Assembly (NCBI RefSeq): GCF_024347135.1
Contig: NZ_AP024907.1
Location: 2,347,001-2,411,000, forward strand
DNA length: 64,000 nucleotides
From: Vibrio spartinae
Lineage (GTDB): Bacteria > Pseudomonadota > Gammaproteobacteria > Enterobacterales > Vibrionaceae
Direction: 5' to 3'
Below, piece by piece: positions 1-10,095 of this stretch. The notes below the pieces were generated by a model that had not been told where the DNA came from, ran no database searches, and was given only the letters and a program-made list of their open reading frames with translations. Each line of letters starts with the position of its first letter. Position 1 is the first letter of the stretch. A program made the translations under genes and the position numbers.

Positions 1-339
1 GCCATCTCTCGCTTTATAGTTCAGCATTGTATTCGGTGCAGAGATCACACCAAACAAGGTCCCATCTTCTAGCCAAAAGCCGAGCTCACGAATGGGATAT
101 TCATCAGGTCCAGAGAACTTAGCCACCGCCTGTATCTGGCTCTCGCCTATATCTTTGAATTCGCCAAACTCGACTCGCTGTAATTCATTTTGCAAAGTCA
201 TCTGCTCAGGATTCGGGGTATAGGCACGATCGCCGGCTGATACCCATTTTAATGATAGTTGGATCCCTTTTGCTTTAGCACTGATACATTCATCCAGACC
301 TTTGCGGGTGATCACTAACTTAATGGTGTCTTCACTCAT
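1..339 (-). CDS. Tail fibre N-terminal (collar) protein, second copy, 3' end cut by window
   Basis: This is the first 113 codons of a second copy of the phage tail-fibre N-terminal protein encoded at 2082-2633. The two copies are near-identical at the DNA level, with only scattered substitutions, and start with the same residues MSEDTIKLVITRKGLDEC. In P2-like phages this domain sits at the base of the fibre and anchors it to the baseplate, while the following gene or domain supplies receptor binding. The reading frame is open to the window edge, so it may be functional. It follows a broken gpI fragment and a terminator rather than an intact upstream gene, so it may be a silent or alternative cassette. 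What fibre tip it is joined to lies outside the window. Confidence 0.75.
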   Translation of the reverse strand, partial: MSEDTIKLVITRKGLDECISAKAKGIQLSLKWVSAGDRAYTPNPEQMTLQNELQRVEFGEFKDIGESQIQAVAKFSGPDEYPIRELGFWLEDGTLFGVISAPNTMLNYKARDG

Positions 340-528
340 AGTGTTGCTCTCGCATTGATGGTTAAAATAGTGATGTTGTAATGCGCTGAATAGCCAGTCA
401 TATTGATTTAACCATGTCCAACAATCGCTGGAATAACAGCGCTTGCCTCAACAGCATTTACATTCAATCCGGGTGCAGTTGCACCACTGACAGAAAGATC
501 AATTCGAGCATCAGGCATTGGCCATAAT
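336..528 (-). pseudogene. Broken C-terminal fragment of tail protein I (gpI)
   Basis: About 64 codons of the C-terminus of gpI are repeated here without the rest of the gene. Aligned with the intact copy ending at 2630, the fragment carries a C-to-T change that turns a glutamine codon (GHGQINM in the intact gene) into a TAA stop at 418-420 (GHG-stop-INM). The stop and the missing N-terminal three-quarters show that it is a relic of cassette duplication and not a working gene. Downstream it keeps the gpI/fibre junction intact, including the short overlap with the next start codon. Confidence 0.85.
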
Positions 529-534
529 GATACA

Positions 535-558
535 AAAAACGCCTTGATTCAGGCGGTT
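535..558 (-). terminator. Rho-independent terminator after the first fibre cassette
   Basis: On the minus strand a CGCC/GGCG-type stem with a short loop is followed by six T residues (plus-strand A-run at 534-539). It lies 3 bases after the stop of the small gene at 561 and just before the duplicated cassette, so transcription from the main tail operon would be reduced before the second fibre cassette unless it is antiterminated. Confidence 0.6.
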
Positions 559-560
559 AG

Positions 561-836
561 TTACGATGCTGATGGTAGTGGATAACGGGCTTTAATCTCA
601 GCGACTTTATCACGCCAAGATGCCTCTCTGTCTTCAGTTTGATCATACTGCCACGCCATGAAAAGAGGGTCTGACTCAAGGCGGTAAGCTTGTTGTCGTT
701 TGACGATATTTTGAGCCTCCTCAAAATTCTTTTGCTGCAAAACCGACTCGATCTGCTCCTGAGTCATACCCAACGAATTCATATAGCTGCGGGTCGTATC
801 TGTTTGAGTTTGACCCTGAAAAATGTAACTAAACAT
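561..836 (-). CDS. Small tail-fibre-associated protein, 91 aa
   Basis: The product starts MFSYIFQGQTQTD and ends in a segment resembling the recurring phage motif DPLF-x-x-W-(x)n-W-x-x-K-V-x-x-I-K-x-R-Y-P (here DPLFMAWQY and WRDKVAEIKARYP). Small proteins with this tail sequence usually follow fibre or DGR-target genes in Vibrio and other myophages. Their role is not firmly known, and a fibre-assembly helper is the usual guess. The ATG at 836 was chosen over an upstream in-frame ATG because it follows a clear AGGAG Shine-Dalgarno and lies just after the stop of the fibre tip gene. No transmembrane or zinc motif is visible. Confidence 0.6.
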   Translation of the reverse strand: MFSYIFQGQTQTDTTRSYMNSLGMTQEQIESVLQQKNFEEAQNIVKRQQAYRLESDPLFMAWQYDQTEDREASWRDKVAEIKARYPLPSAS

Positions 837-849
837 AGGTTTTCTCCTG

Positions 850-2082
850 TTACACAAACAAAGCGGGGCGAAAACCGACGTTAAAGAACGAGTTCCACCG
901 CGCATAGTTCAGATTGAGCGCCCCCAGCCCGGCGACCGAGCCATCTCCCCAGTAGCCCCCGTGAAGCGGAAACCGGTCACCATAGTTGCAACACCAGAGC
1001 CCACCACCAACTGTAGTCGTGGTTGCTGATTCAATGAGCAATCGACGCAACAGCTCGTTCGGCGTATACCCAGCCGACTTTGTGATCGCAGCAAAATGCG
1101 GGTTATCCATGTACGGGTAGTCGTTACTATCGTCGTCAGCAGGCCCGTTACGCTTGGTTACTGAATTGCTGAGCACGGGTGAACCGATGTAGACATTTCC
1201 GCCGCTTTGATTGTCGGATGTCGAATCAAAATAGACTGGGTGACGATGCCAGTTAGCTTCGGCAACTGCCGGATTGTTATCCAGCGTGGTCAGGATCTGG
1301 CCGTCATCCAATTTCATCTGGTCAATCCACTCCCACACATTGCCGACCAAATCACATACACCGAGTTCGGTATGATCGTGATTCCACGTTGCGGGGCCTT
1401 TGCCTGTATCAGTTCGTGCGGTGCCACTCGTGTCGCCAGGTAATCCGTTGTCGTCACGGCGAGCAGTTTCCCAACTCGCCTCATGGCTACGTCCATAGTT
1501 CGTATTGCCGCGAGACACAGTGCCGTTAGCCAGAGACCAGAGCGCAATGGCTGCCCATTCATGGATCGACATCAGGTGCCAGTTGTCGCCTTTCTGTGTG
1601 CAGAGTTGCTTGGCCGTGTCGTAATCAACCGAGGTTCGCGGCTGTGCCCCACCGATAACAGCGGAGCCACCTGCTGCCGATGATGCCAGGTACTTACCGA
1701 CGAGAATTTCGCCGCGAGGCGCTCCGTTCGTTACAAATGCCGGATGGACACCTGTACCCAGATCAAGCTCTGTTAGTCCCAAGTCTTCAATGTTGAAGCT
1801 CGGAATAACGCACATAATGTTAGGGTTTCCCTGAGCGTCATAAATGACCGTGTTTCGACCGCCTGAGTTATGCTCGACCGCTTTGCGATAGCCGTCTGTG
1901 GCAATGATGGTCAAGCCGTTGGCTTTTTGGTCATATGTGCTTTCGACCTTGGCTATCGAGTCATTGGTCTTTTTGTCAATGGCAGCCATTTTGCCAGACA
2001 CTTCCTGCACGACAGCTTGAGACGCTGCCGTTTGTTCAGCAGATACTTGTTGCAGCTCTGCGATTTTTTGCTCTATAGACAT
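850..2082 (-). CDS. Tail fibre tip with FGE-sulfatase/C-type-lectin fold, probable DGR target
   Basis: The 410-aa product has a short N-terminal heptad-like segment (residues 1-55), a linker, then an FGE-sulfatase/SUMF1-type domain recognised by GNVWEW around residue 250. Its C-terminus follows the pattern HGGYWGDGS-VAG-GALNLNYARWNS-FFNVGFRPAL. This ending is the signature of DGR variable proteins: constant GG, W, AG, ALNLN, AR, NS and NVGFRPAL residues alternate with variable ones. Several variable codons are CAC, TAC, TAT, TTC, TTT and GTC, which are the products expected when AAC or AAT codons of a template are mutated at A. The start overlaps the stop of the upstream fibre gene (TAATG). 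The expected role is receptor binding at the fibre tip. No reverse transcriptase or template repeat is in the window. Confidence 0.8.
   Translation of the reverse strand: MSIEQKIAELQQVSAEQTAASQAVVQEVSGKMAAIDKKTNDSIAKVESTYDQKANGLTIIATDGYRKAVEHNSGGRNTVIYDAQGNPNIMCVIPSFNIEDLGLTELDLGTGVHPAFVTNGAPRGEILVGKYLASSAAGGSAVIGGAQPRTSVDYDTAKQLCTQKGDNWHLMSIHEWAAIALWSLANGTVSRGNTNYGRSHEASWETARRDDNGLPGDTSGTARTDTGKGPATWNHDHTELGVCDLVGNVWEWIDQMKLDDGQILTTLDNNPAVAEANWHRHPVYFDSTSDNQSGGNVYIGSPVLSNSVTKRNGPADDDSNDYPYMDNPHFAAITKSAGYTPNELLRRLLIESATTTTVGGGLWCCNYGDRFPLHGGYWGDGSVAGLGALNLNYARWNSFFNVGFRPALFV
859..993 (-). other. Candidate DGR variable region (VR)
   Basis: The last roughly 45 codons of the fibre tip gene have the constant/variable residue mosaic of DGR variable repeats. 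On the coding strand a G/C-only octamer (CGCCCCGC, at 863-870) lies at the 3' end, which resembles the GC element of the initiation-of-mutagenic-homing site. No A-rich near-copy (template repeat) was noticed elsewhere in the window. If present, it would be left of base 1 or elsewhere in the genome. Confidence 0.6.
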
Positions 2083-2633
2083 TATAAAAGTCCCTCAATA
2101 TGACGTAGTCGCTCTGTGATTGACATTTGATGATGTATTTGTCTTGTGCTTATGGCTTGAGACTGAATGAAAGCACAAGCCATTGTTATCATCTCTTCCG
2201 TTAAGATGATATTCAGATTCTCAGTGCCAACTTCGACTGTAATTGAGTTCGTTGGTATGGCCGATAGATCTAAAGTAAACGGCTGAATACAATGGCCATT
2301 TCTCGCTTTATAGTTCAGCATTGTATTCGGCGCAGAGATCACACCAAACAAGGTCCCATCTTCTAGCCAAAAGCCGAGCTCACGAATGGGATATTCATCA
2401 GGTCCAGAGAACTTAGCCACCGCCTGTATCTGGCTCTCGCCTATATTTTTGAATTCACCAAACTCGACTCGCTGTAATTCATTTTGCAAAGTCATCTGCT
2501 CAGGATTCGGGGTATAGGCACGATCACCGGCTGATACCCATTTTAATGATAGTTGGATCCCTTTTGCTTTAGCACTGATACATTCATCCAGGCCTTTGCG
2601 GGTGATCACTAACTTAATGGTGTCTTCACTCAT
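2082..2633 (-). CDS. Tail fibre N-terminal/collar protein
   Basis: This 183-aa protein resembles the N-terminal domain of P2-type gpH fibres, the part that attaches to the baseplate protein gpI. It has a compact beta-rich core (residues 1-130, with SLKWVSAGD, IRELGFWLEDGTLFGVIS and YKARNGHCIQPFTLDLS) followed by a C-terminal helix rich in glutamine and charged residues. Unlike classical gpH it has no long collagen-like or repeat shaft. The shaft and tip are supplied by the separate downstream gene, whose start overlaps this stop by one base. It overlaps the end of gpI by 4 bases, so translational coupling is likely. A near-identical second copy starts at 339. Confidence 0.75.
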   Translation of the reverse strand: MSEDTIKLVITRKGLDECISAKAKGIQLSLKWVSAGDRAYTPNPEQMTLQNELQRVEFGEFKNIGESQIQAVAKFSGPDEYPIRELGFWLEDGTLFGVISAPNTMLNYKARNGHCIQPFTLDLSAIPTNSITVEVGTENLNIILTEEMITMACAFIQSQAISTRQIHHQMSITERLRHIEGLL

Positions 2634-3373
2634 AGTGTTGCTCTCGCATTGATGGTTAAAACAGTGATGTTGTAATGCGCTGAATAGCCAGTCATATTGA
2701 TTTGACCATGTCCAACAATCGCTGGGATAACAGCACTTGCCTCGACAGCACTTACATTCAATCCGGGAGCAGCCCCGCCATTGATAGAAAAGTCAATTGT
2801 AGCATCAGGCATTGCCCATAATTGTGCATATCCCGAGGTCTCCCGCGTATTGGTCACAGGCGCGATTGCACCGGCTATCTCTATGCTCGTTTCGACCCCA
2901 AACATCAGCGATAGCTCGATCTGATCCCGCTCTGATTTGGTGTCTTCGATATAAGCCAGCAGCTTTTTCACATTGGCCACGTCCACCGGCTTGTTGCCTT
3001 TTTCCCAGGCAACAATCTCCAGACTGTACGGTTGACCTTGTGGCTGTTGCTGATACCACGGTTTGATTTGGCTCTGAAAATCAAAGGACTCCAGAGCGAG
3101 CTTCAGTCCGGCACGGGTACCACTCATTTTTCGGACCTGCCATGCATGTCCGGCTAAGTTGCGTTTAACGGGCTCTGGATCAGATGTATCCCACACCGGC
3201 AATTGAAATTCAGATGCAATATAGGGGACGATTTCAAACGCAGTCTTTTGGGCATCCAGTAGATGCGGGTATGGATTGCCAATACCATAAATTTGCTGAC
3301 TAAATGACAACTCCATTGAACGTTCGAGCGGACTTCGGTTATCAGGAAGGACACTATATGTTTTCAGTGCCAA
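2630..3373 (-). CDS. Baseplate/tail protein I (P2 gpI family)
   Basis: The gene lies directly after gpJ, as in P2. With a TTG start inside the end of gpJ (20-nt overlap) the 247-aa product begins MALKTYSVLPDNRSPLERSM, matching the usual gpI opening in which a leucine-proline and an SPLE motif come first. Longer in-frame reading upstream of 3373 would run far into gpJ and lacks family similarity. The first ATG at 3316 would remove the conserved SPLE start. GpI joins the baseplate wedge to the fibre. The last 60 codons are duplicated, in broken form, at 336-528. Confidence 0.8.
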   Translation of the reverse strand: MALKTYSVLPDNRSPLERSMELSFSQQIYGIGNPYPHLLDAQKTAFEIVPYIASEFQLPVWDTSDPEPVKRNLAGHAWQVRKMSGTRAGLKLALESFDFQSQIKPWYQQQPQGQPYSLEIVAWEKGNKPVDVANVKKLLAYIEDTKSERDQIELSLMFGVETSIEIAGAIAPVTNTRETSGYAQLWAMPDATIDFSINGGAAPGLNVSAVEASAVIPAIVGHGQINMTGYSAHYNITVLTINARATL

Positions 3374-4355
3374 CGGTAATTTTGACTGATTCAAGATAAG
3401 GCGCCTCACTGTAAGCACAACGCAATGGCTGCTCAGGTTGAATAATTTCTCCGCGGTGTGCTCCGGTTGACTCCAATAGAACACTGTAGAGCATTGATGG
3501 CTCGATACTGCCACCGAGTCGATGCTGTTTCAGCGCATAAGCGTTGACCGCTTTCTCTGCTGCTGCCAACACAACATCAGCATCGGGGCCGGGACGAATA
3601 TAAAGTTTCGCTTCACACTGCCATTGGCGAATTTCTGCTGGTCTTACGGTGATCAAATCTGTTTCCTGAGCAATATCATCCCGCTCTAGGTAAGATTGAG
3701 TGGCTTCGATTAATGACGGGCTTGGCATACCATTGCCTTCATGTGTCAGAATGAAACAATCCACAACACCGGGAGAAACTTGTCGGGCTTGTGTATCCTT
3801 GGTCAAACCAGCCATTTCATGATCTGAATATTCATAAGTCACGACCACTCGCTTTGGCTCATGACTGTCAATTTGAACTTCAGGTCTGCCCCCCAAGGTC
3901 ATCGCATGAAAACGATACCCTGAACGTGTACCGGTACTCGCCAAGGCATACGCTGCTAAATAATATCGAGACAGCAGAGAGTCATTACTCTCCATGACGG
4001 GTGGAATCGGAGGGAATGCACCAGGAGCTCCGGGATCAAGAATTTGGCGGGTGACACCTAACTGACTCACAATCAAATCGATCATGTCATCATCGGTCGC
4101 ATACATGCCAAACATCTGTTGTGCTTGACCATTCAATTGCCGAATATGGTTTTGTAAAATAACCGTAAATGCTTCGACAAATTTAGTCAGCAATTCAGCT
4201 TCATTGCCGAGTGTTTCATTCACCGCCGTCGCATCATCTGGAGAGTGCTTTGCAAAGTATGCCAAAATATCGCTCTTCACTTGTTGTAGCAGAACTTCAA
4301 ACGGTGGGGTCTTGATGATTTCCGGTTTAGGTAATGGATTCTGATGTGGAAACAT
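3354..4355 (-). CDS. Baseplate wedge protein J (P2 gpJ family)
   Basis: The 333-aa product fits the baseplate J family. It has a helical N-terminal region, an FPPIPPVMESNDSLLSRYYLAAYALASTGTRSGYRFHAMTLGG-like core with the family's Y-x-x-x-A-x-G-(S/T)-x-x-x-Y-x-x-A arrangement, and a C-terminal beta-alpha domain that contains the acidic ALAAAEKAV-type helix. In contractile tails gpJ forms the periphery of the baseplate with gpW and gpI. The start overlaps gpW by 29 bases and has a GAGG Shine-Dalgarno. It is slightly longer than P2 gpJ (about 300 aa). Position between gpW and gpI supports the call. Confidence 0.88.
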   Translation of the reverse strand: MFPHQNPLPKPEIIKTPPFEVLLQQVKSDILAYFAKHSPDDATAVNETLGNEAELLTKFVEAFTVILQNHIRQLNGQAQQMFGMYATDDDMIDLIVSQLGVTRQILDPGAPGAFPPIPPVMESNDSLLSRYYLAAYALASTGTRSGYRFHAMTLGGRPEVQIDSHEPKRVVVTYEYSDHEMAGLTKDTQARQVSPGVVDCFILTHEGNGMPSPSLIEATQSYLERDDIAQETDLITVRPAEIRQWQCEAKLYIRPGPDADVVLAAAEKAVNAYALKQHRLGGSIEPSMLYSVLLESTGAHRGEIIQPEQPLRCAYSEAPYLESVKITVGTENI

Positions 4356-4689
4356 TCAGGGGTACCTCAAACTTAACTGTTCGCCCTTTCCAATTGCCTG
4401 AAAAGTAAAGGCTTAGGCCAGTAGCGTGACGTGTTGCAATACAACTGTCCGGGATAAAATCAGACAGTCCGTTTTCTGGGTTATAAAATGCCTCAATCGC
4501 AGCAGATTGGATGCGAACCAATGTACTGTCAGTCATATTAGCCGCTAAACTTTCCCGCACTCGGCTACCGAAACCCGAACGCTTGACCCGACCACCTAAC
4601 GGGGTAGTCATCACTTGGGTGATCCGACTGACCAATTGTTCATAACTATCAATTTTTCTGCCGGTAATCCGATCGATACCAATCATCAT
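4327..4689 (-). CDS. Baseplate wedge protein W (gpW/gp25 family)
   Basis: At 120 aa this fits the gp25-like lysozyme-fold family used in contractile tail baseplates. It starts with MMIGIDRITGRKI and then has a helix with I-T-x-V-M-T-T-P-x-G-x-R-x-x-x-x-x-F-G-S, the most conserved family segment (residues about 25-45), and ends in beta strands containing FSGNWKGRTVKFEVPL. In P2, gpW connects the central spike hub to the wedges. Start codons at 4689 and 4686 are adjacent, and the ATGATG overlaps the stop of the preceding small gene, so coupling is likely. Confidence 0.88.
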   Translation of the reverse strand: MMIGIDRITGRKIDSYEQLVSRITQVMTTPLGGRVKRSGFGSRVRESLAANMTDSTLVRIQSAAIEAFYNPENGLSDFIPDSCIATRHATGLSLYFSGNWKGRTVKFEVPLNVSTSESIT

Positions 4690-4884: not shown

Positions 4885-5502
4885 TTATTTCCCCGCTGTA
4901 ACTGTGCTAGATCCATCGCCATGTGGATTGCCGGTAAAATGACAAATGTGTGCTGTCGTGACACAAGGCGATCCACCGTTCAAAGCGATACTTTTGGCAT
5001 CCACGGTTGCCACATCACCAGCAACGATATGAGCACTCTTGTCAACATTAATATGGACATCACCTTTGATATCGACGGTCAGCACGTGATTCTGTGCGTG
5101 ATAGTTGATACGGCTGCCATCAGGATAAACCCGTAAAATTTCATTGGGATCGCCGCTCGGAGAAGGAAAGTTGTCACTAAATAATCCCGTTAAAGCCACC
5201 GTCTGACTGCCGTTATCACCGGCCCCATAGTTCAGTACCAAAGTCTGTTCACCAATCGATGGACAGCGATAGTCTCTGGTTTCACCTGCAGAAGAGGCAA
5301 ACCACCGAATAAATGGTGTCGTTAAGTCACCATGCTTCACTTTGATCAAATAGCCGTTTTCATGGATTGCAGCAACCTGTCCTAATCGAATCAGACTTCG
5401 GTTCCGGCGTCGCAAATCTTCAAGTTCATGGGAAAGTGTTTCGATTCGTTCTAAATATGGGGTCAGCATTTCTCGGACAAGCCCCTCAATTGCCTGACGC
5501 AT
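4885..5502 (-). CDS. Baseplate spike protein V (P2 gpV family)
   Basis: The 205-aa protein has the gpV layout: an N-terminal charged helix (residues 1-40), an OB-fold (about 45-120, with GQVAAIHENGYLIKVKHGDLTTPFIRW and a PSIGEQTLVL strand), then a beta-helical spike (FPSPSGDPNEILRVYPDGSRINYHAQNHVLTVDIKGDVHINV) and a C-terminal apex containing HICHFTGNPHGDGSSTVTAGK-like sequence with histidines that could hold a metal at the tip. It punctures the target membrane at the end of the contracting tail. Length is close to P2 gpV (211 aa). The start overlaps the upstream gene by 17 bases. Confidence 0.88.
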   Translation of the reverse strand: MRQAIEGLVREMLTPYLERIETLSHELEDLRRRNRSLIRLGQVAAIHENGYLIKVKHGDLTTPFIRWFASSAGETRDYRCPSIGEQTLVLNYGAGDNGSQTVALTGLFSDNFPSPSGDPNEILRVYPDGSRINYHAQNHVLTVDIKGDVHINVDKSAHIVAGDVATVDAKSIALNGGSPCVTTAHICHFTGNPHGDGSSTVTAGK

Positions 5503-6043
5503 ACTTCACCTCCAACGGTTGATATTCATCAGCATTGTCCAAATGTTCTGGATTCACAGCCCAGGCAATCCCGCCTCGTTCTTCGTCTGGTTGATTGAGA
5601 GATTCACCAAGATACAAGTTTTGTCGCCAACTGACTGCTCGGGCAATCACCTGATCTAACTGATACTGAAGTCCACTCGGCTCTGAGCGCAAAAATTCAG
5701 GCGCATCAATTTGACGAATATCGATGCCCCAATGATTACGATCAACAAAGCGTTCAATCGTTGCAGTGTTATCTAAAACACGTAAAAAAGAACGCTCGGC
5801 TGAGCGTGGTAACAGACAATGAACCCGAATGTGATAGCCATGACAATATTGTCCGTTGCTATTTCGGGCTCCCGCTCTGCCAAAACGAAACTCAATCAGG
5901 AGAGTCAGAGACTCAATCGTCATGGTGCGATATTCATCATAGTTTTTCACCACCACATCACTTCCCAATAATTGTCCAAGGGACTTTTCAATCTGTTCAT
6001 AAAGCTGACTGGGATATTCAAGTTGTAATATTTCTGAGTTCAA
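5486..6043 (-). CDS. Phage tail protein, possible tail terminator/completion protein
   Basis: First gene of the tail operon, 185 aa. The start is TTG, chosen because it follows a strong AGGAGAGG Shine-Dalgarno and there is no suitable ATG. The sequence has an N-terminal helix (LYEQIEKSLGQLLG), then a strand pattern with TIESLTLLIEFRFGRAG and YHIRVHCLLPRSAERSFLRVLDNTATIERFVDRNHWG. That pattern recalls tail terminator or completion proteins, in which a subunit samples local tube ends, but I cannot assign it to a named family. It contains no signal peptide or membrane segment. It is preceded by 820 bases of non-coding leader and followed by gpV. Confidence 0.5.
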   Translation of the reverse strand: MNSEILQLEYPSQLYEQIEKSLGQLLGSDVVVKNYDEYRTMTIESLTLLIEFRFGRAGARNSNGQYCHGYHIRVHCLLPRSAERSFLRVLDNTATIERFVDRNHWGIDIRQIDAPEFLRSEPSGLQYQLDQVIARAVSWRQNLYLGESLNQPDEERGGIAWAVNPEHLDNADEYQPLEVKYASGN

Positions 6044-6250
6044 AACACCTCTCCTATGTAAGGGAGAACATCACACTCTCGGTGTGTATTAATTTATCAA
6101 GCTGAAGTAAAAAATTAACATAAAAAATGAAACATTAATAAAAACACCGGTCGTTAAGCATTTCTAAAAAATATACATTACTTTAATTAATATTCTATAA
6201 ATTACTTTATATTATAAAATTTTCAGATATACGACATTCAGGTAAATATT
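6044..6250. other. AT-rich leader of the tail operon
   Basis: These roughly 200 bases between the repeat block and the first tail gene are strongly AT-rich and hold no plausible gene. On the minus strand they contain several candidate -10 boxes (for example TATAAT-like sequence near 6205-6220) and the Shine-Dalgarno of the first gene. It is probably the untranslated leader and possibly a promoter region. Confidence 0.5.
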
Positions 6251-6352
6251 GCATTGTGAATATCATGCGCCATGCAAATCTGTATTTCAATATTTACTTG
6301 CGTATCATTGCGAACAGTAAACCGAGAATACATTCATCATAATAAAAATAAA

Positions 6353-6380
6353 AAAGCTCTGACCATTGAGGCAGAGCTTT
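6353..6380 (-). terminator. Terminator-like hairpin in repeat unit 1
   Basis: Nine-base-pair arms AAAGCTCTG and CAGAGCTTT enclose a 10-base loop. In the minus-strand transcript the stem is followed by TTTTTTATTTTTATT, the form of a rho-independent terminator. It would lie downstream of the Q-like gene and upstream of the tail genes. Confidence 0.6.
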
Positions 6381-6736
6381 GCATTGTGGATATCATGCGC
6401 CATGCAAATCTGTATTTCAATATTTACTTGCGTATCATTGCGAACAGTAAACCGAGAATACATCATCATAATAAAAATAAAAAACCTGACCATTGAGGCA
6501 GAGCTTTGCATTGTGGATATCATGCGCCATGCAAATCTGTATTTCAATATTTACTTGCGTATCATTGCGAACAGTAAACCGAGAATACATCATCATAATA
6601 AAAATAAAAAACCTGACCATTGAGGCAGAGCTTTGCATTGTGGATATCATGCGCCATGCAAATCTGTATTTCAATATTTACTTGCGTATCATTGCGAACA
6701 GTAAACCGAGAATATAGTCATCACAATAAAAATAAA

Positions 6737-6764
6737 AAAGCTCTGACCATTGAGGCAGAGCTTT
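6737..6764 (-). terminator. Terminator-like hairpin in repeat unit 4
   Basis: The hairpin is identical in stem and loop to the one in unit 1 and is also followed by a T-rich run in the minus-strand direction. It is the first such hairpin met by transcription coming from the Q-like gene. Confidence 0.6.
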
Positions 6765-6786
6765 GCATTGTGGATAGCATACGCCA

Positions 6787-6832
6787 TTCAAATATATTTA
6801 TTCGCATTATTGCGAAATAAATTATATTTGAA
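6787..6832. repeat. 46-bp near-perfect inverted repeat
   Basis: Arms starting TTCAAATATA and ending TATATTTGAA pair over about 20 bp with two single-base bulges and a TTAT loop. The inner part is TTCGCA-TTAT-TGCGAA. It sits 35 bases after the stop of the Q-like gene. There is no T-run on either side, so it is more likely a protein-binding site or RNA-processing hairpin than a simple terminator. Confidence 0.7.
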
Positions 6833-6866: not shown

Positions 6867-7463
6867 TTAATTCATAAGAGCATAGGCTTCTTCTTCTAAT
6901 TTTATTCTTTCCATCAATGTCAACATTGCAGCATTACGTTGTGCCGCAAGCCACTGACTAAGTTCTTCCAGAATGACATGGTATCGTTTAAATATTGGGT
7001 AAGAACAAATAAAACGGCTAGAGCACATTGCAACATAACGTGATTCAGGGCTCCATAATACGCGGCCATCTTTGCAATGAGTACACTTTCTCATCTGCCG
7101 GTGTGGCGTTTTATAGAGGCCTGTACCACCACAAGATGAGCAGATACACCCTTGTGGCTGAGTTGCTTCTTCGATTGCCGCGTTGATCATCGCTGCAAAT
7201 CCAGATTCACTGCGCTGGCCACGCCAGTTTTTAGTCAGCGTGACAATTTCAGATTGGATCACTTTTTCCAAAGTCTGGCGAGAATGACGACATCCTTGTG
7301 TTTCGACAAATAGAATGAGAAAACCAACCGGTGAAGCTTTCCAGCTTACGCCGACCATTGAGAGTTGTTCCTCAACACTGAATTTACCTCTCCCTCCCTG
7401 ATGCATCGTCTGATAATCCATACTTTTCAGATTAAACTTCGCCAGTAATGTTTCAGGTCTCAT
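6867..7463 (-). CDS. Q-like late antitermination protein with zinc finger
   Basis: The 198-aa protein carries a four-cysteine zinc-finger motif, CSSCGGTG (C108, C111) and CTHCKDGRV (C127, C130), set in a mostly helical protein. This arrangement is found in phage antitermination Q proteins, which load onto RNA polymerase near the late promoter and let it read through terminators. The alternative, a DnaJ-type cysteine-rich domain, has four such repeats and a different context. The gene lies between a divergent repressor and a leader carrying terminator-like hairpins, all on the strand of the tail operon, which fits a Q role. A perfect ACAAATATTTGT palindrome sits about 20 bases before its start. 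Confidence 0.65.
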   Translation of the reverse strand: MRPETLLAKFNLKSMDYQTMHQGGRGKFSVEEQLSMVGVSWKASPVGFLILFVETQGCRHSRQTLEKVIQSEIVTLTKNWRGQRSESGFAAMINAAIEEATQPQGCICSSCGGTGLYKTPHRQMRKCTHCKDGRVLWSPESRYVAMCSSRFICSYPIFKRYHVILEELSQWLAAQRNAAMLTLMERIKLEEEAYALMN

Positions 7464-7586: not shown

Positions 7587-7622
7587 AACCAATAGTTATA
7601 GAATTAAATACAACTATTGGTT
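7587..7622. promoter_or_regulatory. Inverted repeat, candidate operator of the repressor
   Basis: Perfect 11-bp arms AACCAATAGTT and AACTATTGGTT are separated by 14 bp, so the arm centres are 25 bp apart. It lies in the divergent intergenic region, 52 bases before the repressor start, a typical position for an autoregulatory phage operator. An AT-rich candidate -10 sits within the spacer. Confidence 0.6.
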
Positions 7623-7673
7623 TTCTTTCAAGCCCACAATGCGAACTATCAGTTTCATATTAGAGATTTAATC

Positions 7674-8420
7674 ATGACCAATCATAATGTTCTCACTTTT
7701 GCACAACGGCTCAACACCATCTGCGATGAACAAGGAATTCCTGTACGGGGGAGAGCCCGCTATCTACAGGAGAACCTCCCCTATCGGCTCTCACTGACCG
7801 GAATCAGAAAATGGCTCATCGGTGAAGCCATACCAGAGACGTCAAAATTGATAAATATCGCGGAATTACTAGGGACAACAGTCGAGTGTCTACTCGGGAG
7901 CAGGCATACGCAGGAAATTAAACAACCAGAAATAAGCCATCACTCATCGAGTGTCATCACAGCGAATACAACCCCAGAAGAGAGTACTCGGAACTTTAAG
8001 CCACTGGCGAAGCATCAATCCAGAGTATTACCGCTGTTGACGCCAGACCAAGTCCTCAAACAATCCATTGCCTCTCTTCCCATCCGTTCCGTAACAAAAT
8101 GGATAACTGTCAGCGATGATATTCCGGCACAAGCATTCGCCATGCAAGTGGATGGCAACTCAATGTGTAATCCGAACGGTTTTCCAAGTATACCCGAAGG
8201 TTCGACCGTGATTATCGAACCCGGTCATGAGATACAACACGGTAAAATAGTCGTCGTGACTGACTATCATTCGAATGATTATGTCTCTGTCAAAAAGCTA
8301 GAAATTGACGGACCACATCAACTACTCGTCTCACTCAATACGATCTATCCTCCCCTTGAGTTTGATACCGACCGCTTTCGCATCATCGGCTATGTCAAAC
8401 AAATTATGATGACACTCTAA
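7674..8420 (+). CDS. Phage repressor: HTH plus S24 (LexA-type) peptidase domain
   Basis: The 248-aa product has an N-terminal XRE-type helix-turn-helix (residues about 5-75, including GIRKWLIGEAIPETSKLINIAELL) and a C-terminal S24 domain with the nucleophile in DGNSM (S163) and the general-base lysine in YVSVKKLE (K207 or K208). Such repressors hold lytic or bacteriocin genes off until DNA damage. I see no Ala-Gly or Cys-Gly dipeptide between the HTH and the catalytic core, so self-cleavage is not assured. ATG 7674 was chosen over a TTG 57 bases upstream that lies inside the operator repeat. It is the last phage-type gene before chromosomal sbcB. Confidence 0.85.
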   Translation: MTNHNVLTFAQRLNTICDEQGIPVRGRARYLQENLPYRLSLTGIRKWLIGEAIPETSKLINIAELLGTTVECLLGSRHTQEIKQPEISHHSSSVITANTTPEESTRNFKPLAKHQSRVLPLLTPDQVLKQSIASLPIRSVTKWITVSDDIPAQAFAMQVDGNSMCNPNGFPSIPEGSTVIIEPGHEIQHGKIVVVTDYHSNDYVSVKKLEIDGPHQLLVSLNTIYPPLEFDTDRFRIIGYVKQIMMTL

Positions 8421-8670: not shown

Positions 8671-10095
8671 ATGAAAAACAACGAACAACCAACATTCTTC
8701 TTTTTCGATTATGAAACTTGGGGAGTCCATCCCGCAAAAGATCGTCCCTGTCAGTTTGCCGGGGTCAGAACGGATATGGACTTCAATATCATTGGCGAAC
8801 CGCTGGTCATCTTCTGTCAACTACCGGTCGATTATCTGCCTGCACCGGAAGCTGCACTCATCACCGGTATCACCCCACAACAGGCCAATAGCAAAGGTTT
8901 ATCAGAGCCAGAATTTATTCAGCGTATCCATCAGGAATTGTCCCATCCCAATACAACCTGTCTGGGTTATAACAATATCCGTTTTGACGATGAAGTGACT
9001 CGTTATACCTGTTATCGCAATTTTATTGATCCTTATGCATGGAGCTGGCAAAACGGCAATTCGCGTTGGGATCTGCTGGACGTTGCTCGCGCCTGTCATG
9101 CATTACGTCCGGAAGGCGTTGTATGGCCTCAGAATGAAGATGGCAATACCAGCTTTAAACTCGAACATCTTTCCGTTGCAAATGGTATCGAGCATACAAA
9201 TGCCCATGATGCGATGGCCGACGTGTATGCAACCATCGAATTGGCAAAAGTCATCAAAAATGCGCAACCGAAATTATTCGATTATTTCTATTCCATGCGC
9301 CATAAACGCAAACTGAATGCGTTAATCGATATTGTCAGTATGACGCCATTAATGCATGTGTCCGGTATGCTCGGCAGCCACTGCCAATATACCAGTTGGG
9401 TTGTGCCACTTGCTTGGCATCCGCATAATAAAAATGCGGTCATCATGGTTGATTTGGCGAAGGATCCCCAGCCACTCTTTGATCTCAATGCTGATGAAAT
9501 CAAAGAGCGTCTCTATACCAAACATGAAGACTTACAAGATGATGAGTTACCGATCCCGGTTAAGCTGGTTCATCTCAATAAATGCCCGATCCTCGCTCCT
9601 GCCAAGACGCTAACGGCAGAAAATGCACATACCATCGGGATCGATAGAGACAAATGTTTACATCATTTATCTCTTATGAAGCAAGCTCAGGATATCAGAG
9701 AGAAGCTGGTCCAAGTATTTGGTGAAGAGAAAGACTACCCAACGAATACTGACGTCGATACGATGTTATACCACAACTTTTTCAATCCCGCGGACAAGGC
9801 TGCGATGGAGATTATCCGACAGACATCGCCTGAAGCTTTACGGGATTTATCGATCTCTTTCCAGGACTCACGGATCACCCCCTTATTGTTCCGTTATCGA
9901 GCCAGAAACTATCCTGAAACACTCACCATGCATGAACAGAAACAGTGGCAATCCCACTGTCAGGATTACTTCTCCCAACATATGGATGATTATATTCTTC
10001 GTCTGGAAAATCTGGCTCATGAACATGAGCAGGATTCCCACAAGATGCAGATCCTAAAATCAATCTACCAATATGTGCTGAACCTGACATCATAA
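8671..10095 (+). CDS. sbcB: Exodeoxyribonuclease I
   Basis: At 474 aa it has the length of E. coli ExoI. The DEDDh catalytic set is visible: FFFDYETWG (D and E), NNIRFDDE (D) and [10 protein letters not shown] (H and D). The central SH3-like region and C-terminal helical domain follow. The enzyme degrades single-stranded DNA 3' to 5' in mismatch repair and recombination and binds SSB. It is the first chromosomal gene next to the phage-tail locus and has no integrase or obvious att site beside it. The 250 bases upstream hold only a GTTGATT/AATCAAC inverted repeat near 8636-8659. A CATGCAAG/CTTGCATG stem-loop follows the gene at 10124-10157. Confidence 0.95.

What the first reader, a model, noticed from the sequence alone, without database searches (positions are those of the whole stretch)
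850..2082. Fibre tip protein with the variable-region signature of a diversity-generating retroelement
The C-terminus shows constant GG, W, AG, ALNLN, AR, NS and NVGFRPAL residues with variable ones between. Several variable codons (CAC, TAC, TAT, TTC, TTT, GTC) look like AAC or AAT codons altered at A, the chemistry of DGR mutagenesis. Seen: the mosaic, the GNVWEW fold marker and a GC octamer near the stop. Known: DGR targets use a C-type-lectin/FGE fold and often sit in phage fibres. Inferred: the receptor-binding tip of this tail is diversified. No reverse transcriptase or template is in the window, so it may lie to the left, act in trans, or be lost.
Basis: partly seen in the sequence, partly recalled or inferred. 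Interest (0 to 1): 0.82.

Follow-up and report, generated by a model that had tools for sequence, protein, structure and literature searches.

The report
Frozen retroelement-made tailocin fibre tip
The tip of this phage-tail-like particle's fibre carries the marks of a mutation-making retroelement, but that retroelement is gone from the genome, and the tip is now inherited nearly unchanged, as one of several tandem copies.

Summary
The 410-aa protein at 850-2082 (-) is about 90% identical to the variable protein of Vibrio phages VHML and VP58.5, which sits beside a diversity-generating retroelement (DGR). Against a phage template repeat (TR), the window's 116-nt variable region (VR) differs at 12 of 24 A sites and 6 of 92 other sites (p=4e-6). 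The gene body shows no A excess.

Ongoing diversification is not supported. The searches found no template, Avd or DGR reverse transcriptase (RT) in the genome. The post-VR hairpin is missing too: hairpin, avd, TR and RT (1,683 nt in phage locus L024) are replaced by 13 nt. A sister genome carries nearly the same VR, and differences between them are mostly third-position.

The carrier looks like a headless contractile tail (R-type tailocin). It occurs in six genomes of the genus with 12 fibre copies (1-3 each), none with a DGR beside it.

Best reading: DGR-made binding tips, frozen after loss of the machine, kept as a cassette repertoire reshuffled by recombination. Untested at the bench.

The parts
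850..2082 (-). Fibre / receptor-binding protein, 410 aa, DGR variable-protein family (phrog_2889; FGE-sulfatase domain)
   Evidence: ~90% identical to VHML orf35 and VP58.5 gp18
862..977 (-). Variable region (116-nt core aligned to the phage template repeat)
   Evidence: 12/24 A-site vs 6/92 non-A mismatches
837..849 (-). 13-nt junction between fibre stop and next start codon, where phage locus L024 has 1,683 nt with hairpin, avd, TR and RT
561..836 (-). MFSY protein (phrog_5714-like), which in phage locus L024 starts at the end of the DGR reverse transcriptase gene
340..560 (-). Duplicated 3' remnant of the gpI-like gene at the start of the second cassette
1..339 (-). 5' part of the gpH-like adaptor of the second cassette (complete, 183 aa, in L004), which continues left into a second DGR-type fibre (L003 18559-19788) and a third, different fibre cassette (L003 16801-18047)
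2082..2633 (-). gpH-like tail-fibre adaptor (phrog_3737), 183 aa
2630..3316 (-). gpI-like tail protein (phrog_48)
3354..4355 (-). gpJ-like baseplate protein (Baseplate_J)
4327..4689 (-). gpW-like baseplate wedge protein (phrog_43)
4885..5502 (-). gpV-like spike/baseplate protein (Phage_base_V)
5486..6043 (-). phrog_1072 tail-operon protein
6867..7463 (-). Q-like antitermination / activator protein (phrog_127)
7617..8420 (+). S24 / LexA-CI-like repressor

Best explanation
Window 850-2082 encodes the receptor-binding protein of an R-type tailocin (a headless P2-like contractile tail) in a Vibrio near V. gazogenes, V. ruber and V. rhizosphaerae (relationship inferred). Shown by comparison: its VR bears adenine-specific mutagenesis of the VHML-phage DGR type; hairpin, avd, TR and RT are absent while the genes on either side are kept; the VR is shared with a sister genome with mostly third-position differences; the cassette gpH-fibre-MFSY is duplicated in tandem, and copies within a genome tend to be alike at the anchor end but differ at the tips. 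Inferred: each fixed VR is a selected, useful binding specificity; the array gives the particle several fibre choices; new combinations now come from cassette duplication, loss and recombination, not from retrohoming.
For: DGR origin: 12/24 A vs 6/92 non-A mismatches, no A excess in the body, ~90% identity to VHML/VP58.5 proteins that sit beside TR and RT. Loss: RVT_1 finds two RTs, a group II intron maturase and a retron-type RT, although two DGR RTs score 71.8 and 68.8 bits on that model against a cut-off of 29.6. A DGR RT query hits in G000 only the VR itself at E<=1e-10. bAvd: no match at E<=1. TR DNA hits above chance level only the two fibres, and in five sister genomes only their 10 VR copies. 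Hairpin in 15 of 15 RT-bearing loci and in 0 of 12 tailocin copies. Freezing: differences from TR shared by window and sister VR (G186a) are A-biased (10/24 vs 3/92, p=4.7e-6), differences between them are not (4 A, 6 non-A, p=0.12; few sites, low power); the sister VRs differ by 10/129 nt at codon positions 2,1,7, whereas phage loci L024 and L025 have 0/1101 body and 14/129 VR differences at positions 8,5,1. Array: 2.29-kb direct repeats in G000; 1-3 copies in six genomes, next to cobT in 6 of 6, and between cobT and sbcB in the 4 where both flanks were fetched. Nearest neighbour is an own-genome sibling for 6 of 11 copies by the first 150 codons, 3 of 11 by the middle and 1 of 11 by VR.
Against: The second copy (L003 18559-19788) has 26/92 non-A mismatches to the TR (16/24 A, p=7e-4; p=3e-3 against the TR with fewest non-A mismatches), so its DGR origin is weaker or older. 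G084c, G241, G231a and G231b also give only p of about 6e-4 to 1.5e-3. The excess could partly reflect selection on exposed residues, though in the window the third position changed in only 1 of the ten AAY codons of the template (counted by eye). No separate lysis gene was recognised; the tape measure alone has partial matches to lysin-named families. The tube protein is named 'head closure' in PHROGs, though Pfam names it tail tube. Particle production and killing are untested. No second strain of the window's own species was examined.
Confidence: 0.82

Rival explanations
1. The VR is still an active DGR target, served in trans by a DGR elsewhere (prophage, plasmid or infecting VHML-like phage).
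For: VR is 84% identical to the phage TR and keeps the same GC octamer. Guo et al. 2011 mention possible hairpin-independent pathways of much lower efficiency (passage). VHML-like phages come from Vibrio hosts.
Against: No TR, Avd or DGR RT found in G000. No hairpin in 12 of 12 copies. The sister VR shows third-position drift, not A-site turnover.
Confidence: 0.05
2. No DGR was ever involved: ordinary positive selection and recombination on an FGE/C-type-lectin fibre tip make the mosaic.
For: The second copy and some sister copies carry many non-A differences; between the two copies of the window's genome, differences in the last 60 codons fall at codon positions 1, 2, 3 as 18, 13, 29.
Against: Window VR: 12/24 A vs 6/92 non-A against a phage TR; no A excess in the body; the VHML orthologue lies in a known phage DGR.
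Confidence: 0.04
3. The element is a decaying VHML/P2-like prophage rather than a working tailocin, and the fibre array is neutral debris.
For: No separate lysis gene recognised; IS200-like insertion in the G084 island; short gpH copies (77-80 aa) in G084 and G241, and no gpH ORF of 75 aa or more before the second fibre in G185, G186 and G231.
Against: Tail genes open in six genomes, sheath 95-96% identical, Q-like and S24 regulators, all 12 fibre ORFs intact, third-position-biased divergence.
Confidence: 0.12
4. The tailocin never had a DGR: fibre cassettes were acquired ready-made from phages that had already lost theirs.
For: Three unnamed viral contigs (L028-L030; head genes shown in two of them) also carry the fibre without RT, Avd or hairpin, with two other junction types.
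Against: All 12 tailocin copies share one type of junction, which also fits one loss in the tailocin ancestor. This rival changes only where the loss happened.
Confidence: 0.35

Closest known systems
DGR of Vibrio phages VHML (orf35-orf37) and VP58.5 (gp18-gp20)
   Same: Fibre protein about 90% identical, same VR position, same GC octamer, same following MFSY gene
   Different: Phages hold hairpin, TR and RT (avd detected in VP58.5, not in my search of the VHML record); the window's tailocin has none
Pseudoalteromonas phages ACA1/ACA2 antireceptor + DGR (PMC10612066, section 3.13 read)
   Same: P2-like tail, fibre split into gpH-like adaptor and DGR antireceptor, 58-59% identical
   Different: DGR present in the phages; the inactive RT reported there is a frameshift in one prophage, not a clean removal
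TaqVP, a Thermus aquaticus DGR variable protein (PDB 5vf4; PMC6328139, passages)
   Same: Sequence match over residues 61-408, E 9e-61, VR at the same C-terminal place
   Different: Remote relative; not a tailocin fibre
Tailocins with switchable or exchanged fibres, e.g. carotovoricin (PMC13195805, passages)
   Same: Tail fibre locus diversified and shared across species by recombination
   Different: Some carotovoricins use the Ein invertase; here direct tandem cassettes, no inverted repeat of 40 nt or more in L004, and tips of DGR origin

Membership tests
Complete diversity-generating retroelement | Reverse transcriptase of the DGR clade | tested here: not met
   positive control on RVT_1
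Complete diversity-generating retroelement | Template repeat near-identical to VR | tested here: not met
   only the two fibre genes match above chance level
Complete diversity-generating retroelement | Accessory Avd protein | tested here: not met
   no PF22296 match at E<=1; the Avd of L024 scores 108 bits
Complete diversity-generating retroelement | GC-rich hairpin with GRNA loop just after VR | tested here: not met
   15/15 RT-bearing loci yes, 0/12 tailocin copies
DGR variable protein (VHML type) | Full-length homology to a known DGR target | tested here: met
DGR variable protein (VHML type) | VR differs from TR mainly at A | tested here: met
   for the window copy; weaker for the left copy
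DGR variable protein (VHML type) | C-type lectin / FGE fold | tested here: met
   by sequence only: Pfam FGE-sulfatase, PDB 5vf4; no structure model was obtained
R-type tailocin | Contractile tail genes (sheath, tube, tape, baseplate, fibre) | tested here: met
R-type tailocin | No capsid, portal, terminase or integrase in the element | tested here: met
   none among 21 island ORFs scanned against PHROGs; the tube protein carries the PHROG label 'head closure'. Left copies of gpH and MFSY and ORFs under about 90 aa were not scanned
R-type tailocin | Lysis module | tested here: inconclusive
   no holin or endolysin ORF recognised; partial lysin-named matches in the tape measure only
R-type tailocin | Particle release and killing of relatives | not testable with these tools
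   needs induction and killing assays

The most novel reading that the evidence does not exclude
A DGR used once as an inventor and then discarded: a bacterial lineage kept several binding tips made by phage hypermutation as fixed tandem cassettes of a bacteriocin, under purifying selection across several of the six genomes that hold them, with recombination in place of reverse transcription as the source of new combinations.
Probability: 0.5. Interest if true: 0.7.

Novelty: new variant of a known kind. Interest (0 to 1): 0.58.

Why it matters
DGR targets are usually studied while they hypermutate (my general knowledge), so which of their many outputs are worth keeping is hard to see. A series of frozen VRs with 0, 4, 6, 26 and 29 non-A mismatches after DGR loss (L029, L028, window, left copy, L030), some shared between species, would let selection be read directly: which A-site choices stay fixed and which drift. 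It also links phage hypermutation to bacterial warfare, because here its products would aim a bacteriocin. Searches for 'diversity-generating retroelement' with 'tailocin', 'phage tail-like' or 'pyocin' listed 3, 3 and 2 papers; none has this as its subject by title and start of abstract, and of these only PMC12724379 (passages) and PMC10612066 (passages and one section) were opened.

Tried and rejected
DGR to the left of base 1: rejected; a second fibre cassette is there. DGR elsewhere in the genome: none found. The two RTs found are a group II intron maturase (365.7 bits, TIGR04416) and a retron-type RT (best PADLOC model RT_VI; its NCBIfam retron scores lie below cut-off). DGR siblings from one template as the explanation of the two copies in this genome: rejected; differences in the last 60 codons fall at codon positions 1, 2, 3 as 18, 13, 29. 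Invertible fibre switch: no inverted repeat of 40 nt or more in L004. Structured RNA: no Rfam family at gathering threshold in L004. Structure prediction gave no model (below). G028 and G256 stretches (L097, L098) hold more distant tails without this fibre and were not used.

Full report
What is there. The window is G000:C1:2347001-2411000 of a 5.19-Mb genome in two contigs. Bases 850-2082 on the minus strand encode 410 aa with a Pfam FGE-sulfatase match and a full-length match to phrog_2889. By tblastn the best phage records are Vibrio phages VP58.5 (90.5%) and VHML (89.5%); 58 phage records match in all. In VP58.5 and in the related contig L024 the order is gpH-like adaptor, this protein, avd, RT, MFSY gene, then the sheath region; in the VHML record the RT is annotated and my Avd search found no open frame. 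In L024 the template is translated as the start of the RT, as described for the ACA phages (PMC10612066 section 3.13). In the PDB the one match at E<=0.1 is 5vf4, E 9e-61, which is the Thermus aquaticus DGR variable protein (PMC6328139, passages).

The DGR signature is real. Aligned without gaps to the template of L024, the window's VR (116 nt) differs at 12 of 24 A and 6 of 92 other positions (Fisher p=3.7e-6). Ten phage loci compared with the same template in that call gave 7-16 of 24 A and 0-2 of 92 others; phage loci with more distant templates were not put through that call. In the body of the gene, A positions are not enriched (A 34/286, C 64/300, G 35/293, T 45/219).

The machine is missing. 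RVT_1 finds two RTs in the genome: a group II intron maturase about 0.97 Mb away and a retron-type RT about 1.5 Mb away. DGR RTs from L024 and G136 score 71.8 and 68.8 bits on RVT_1 against a cut-off of 29.6, so a DGR RT should have shown. A DGR RT query over 148 genomes, G000 among them, found in G000 only the VR itself at E<=1e-10. Avd: no match. TR DNA: only the two fibre genes; the other listed matches are 14-19 nt long with E above 1. In the five sister genomes TR DNA finds ten places, which are their ten VR copies; two of the five (G084, G231) have no RVT_1 match, and the seven RTs of the other three lie elsewhere in their genomes and were not classified.

The site is also gone. Phage loci carry a GC-rich stem with a GRNA loop about 20 nt after the fibre stop, the element that Guo et al. 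showed to be needed for efficient target recognition and listed for VHML (PMC3240598, passages). Of the fibre rows examined, all 15 in loci with a detected RT have it. L022, L032, L035 and L038 have it too, but their contigs end before an RT could be seen; L026 is cut inside the gene. None of the 12 tailocin copies has it; nor do L027 to L030 and L048, which also have no detected RT. In the tailocin copies the stop codon is followed after 13-14 nt by the MFSY start, where L024 has 1,683 nt. L027, an IMG/VR contig with a VR identical at protein level to G241, is not counted as a copy.

The carrier looks like a tailocin. Between cobT (L003 8318-9352) and sbcB (window 8671-10095) lie gpD, gpU, tape measure, chaperone, tube, sheath, three fibre cassettes, gpI, gpJ, gpW, gpV, a Q-like activator and an S24 repressor, about 18.9 kb (cobT and sbcB are my names for these ORFs, by eye). 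No capsid, portal, terminase or integrase match was found for 21 island ORFs scanned against PHROGs; one PHROG label for the tube protein reads 'head closure', but Pfam calls it Phage_tube FII. No separate lysis gene was recognised; the tape measure has partial matches to lysin-named families. A sheath search in 227 genomes of the genus found 20 at E<=1e-60; six of these (G000 included) have 95-100% identical sheaths, and these six are the ones that hold the fibre at 81% identity or more (8 of 227 genomes match the fibre at E<=1e-40; the other two, G015 and G193, are 54% and 50% relatives, identities also).

Tandem cassettes. In G000 the unit gpI remnant - gpH - fibre - MFSY repeats every 2.29 kb. 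Copies of the DGR-type fibre: G000 2, G084 3, G185 2, G186 2, G231 2, G241 1, all with open frames and no DGR beside them. Outside G000 the later cassettes have a short gpH (77-80 aa; G084, G241) or none of 75 aa or more (G185, G186, G231). A third cassette in G000 carries a different fibre (phrog_10758). In G000 the two DGR-type fibres differ by 3.4% in the first 150 codons, 11.2% in the middle and 36.4% in the VR.

The tip is frozen. The window's VR recurs in G186 (10 of 129 nt different, codon positions 2,1,7); G185b/G186b differ by 4, G084c/G241 by 1, G084c/G231a by 3 and G241/G231a by 3. Differences from the TR shared by such pairs are A-biased (window/G186a 10/24 vs 3/92, p=4.7e-6; four other pairs, one of them the two G231 paralogues, p 2.7e-7 to 5.6e-4), while differences between the members are not (p 0.12 to 1.0; only 1-13 sites each, so power is low). 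Phages behave in the opposite way: L024 and L025 are identical over 1,101 body nt and differ at 14 of 129 VR nt, positions 8,5,1. These tailocin pairs were chosen because they share VRs; the other tailocin pairs compared differ by 10-36% in the VR.

Recombination. By the first 150 codons the nearest relative of 6 of 11 copies that have a sibling is that sibling; by the middle part 3 of 11; by VR 1 of 11. This fits homogenisation of the anchoring end with exchange or retention of tips. I infer homologous recombination between direct repeats; no formal recombination test was run.

Generality. Three unnamed viral contigs (L028, L029, L030) carry 75-77% identical fibres and also lack RT, Avd and hairpin, L028 and L029 with one junction type and L030 with another, both unlike the tailocin's. 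Head genes were shown for the contigs of L029 and L030 (L115, L119); that of L028 (L118) was not scanned. Their A versus non-A mismatches to the L033 template are 11/26 vs 4/90, 12/26 vs 0/90 and 16/26 vs 29/90. So clean loss of this DGR seems to recur, and non-A mismatches may serve as a rough clock.

Limits. The window's second copy has a weak signal (16/24 vs 26/92, p=7e-4). Fisher tests treat sites as independent. No strain-level data and no structure model were obtained. Function of the particle is inferred from gene content.

Noticed in passing
window 6249-6793: A 127-bp unit repeated 4.2 times at 97% matches between the tail operon and the Q-like gene, possibly in its leader.
   Followed up: no
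L003 16801-18047: Third fibre cassette with a different 228-aa fibre (phrog_10758) and a gpH-like adaptor alike at its N-terminus; related cassettes in G185, G186 and G231.
   Followed up: partly
L028, L029, L030 (7227 onwards): Viral contigs that lost the same DGR, with a junction in L030 unlike that of L028/L029, so loss looks recurrent.
   Followed up: partly
L048 9369-9833: A partial 50-54% relative in G015 followed by an imperfect hairpin and what reads like an Avd start, near a transposase-like ORF: another decaying DGR, by eye only.
   Followed up: no
proteins P0003, P0004: 517-518-aa proteins named from Providencia and Proteus share 90-91% identity with the window fibre over 94% of it, so this fibre crosses bacterial families.
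   Followed up: no
L006 5941-7080: Retron-type reverse transcriptase near guaB/guaA-like and integrase-like ORFs (names by eye); best PADLOC model RT_VI.
   Followed up: no
L045 11486-11947: IS200-like transposase inserted between tube and tail chaperone of the G084 tailocin.
   Followed up: no
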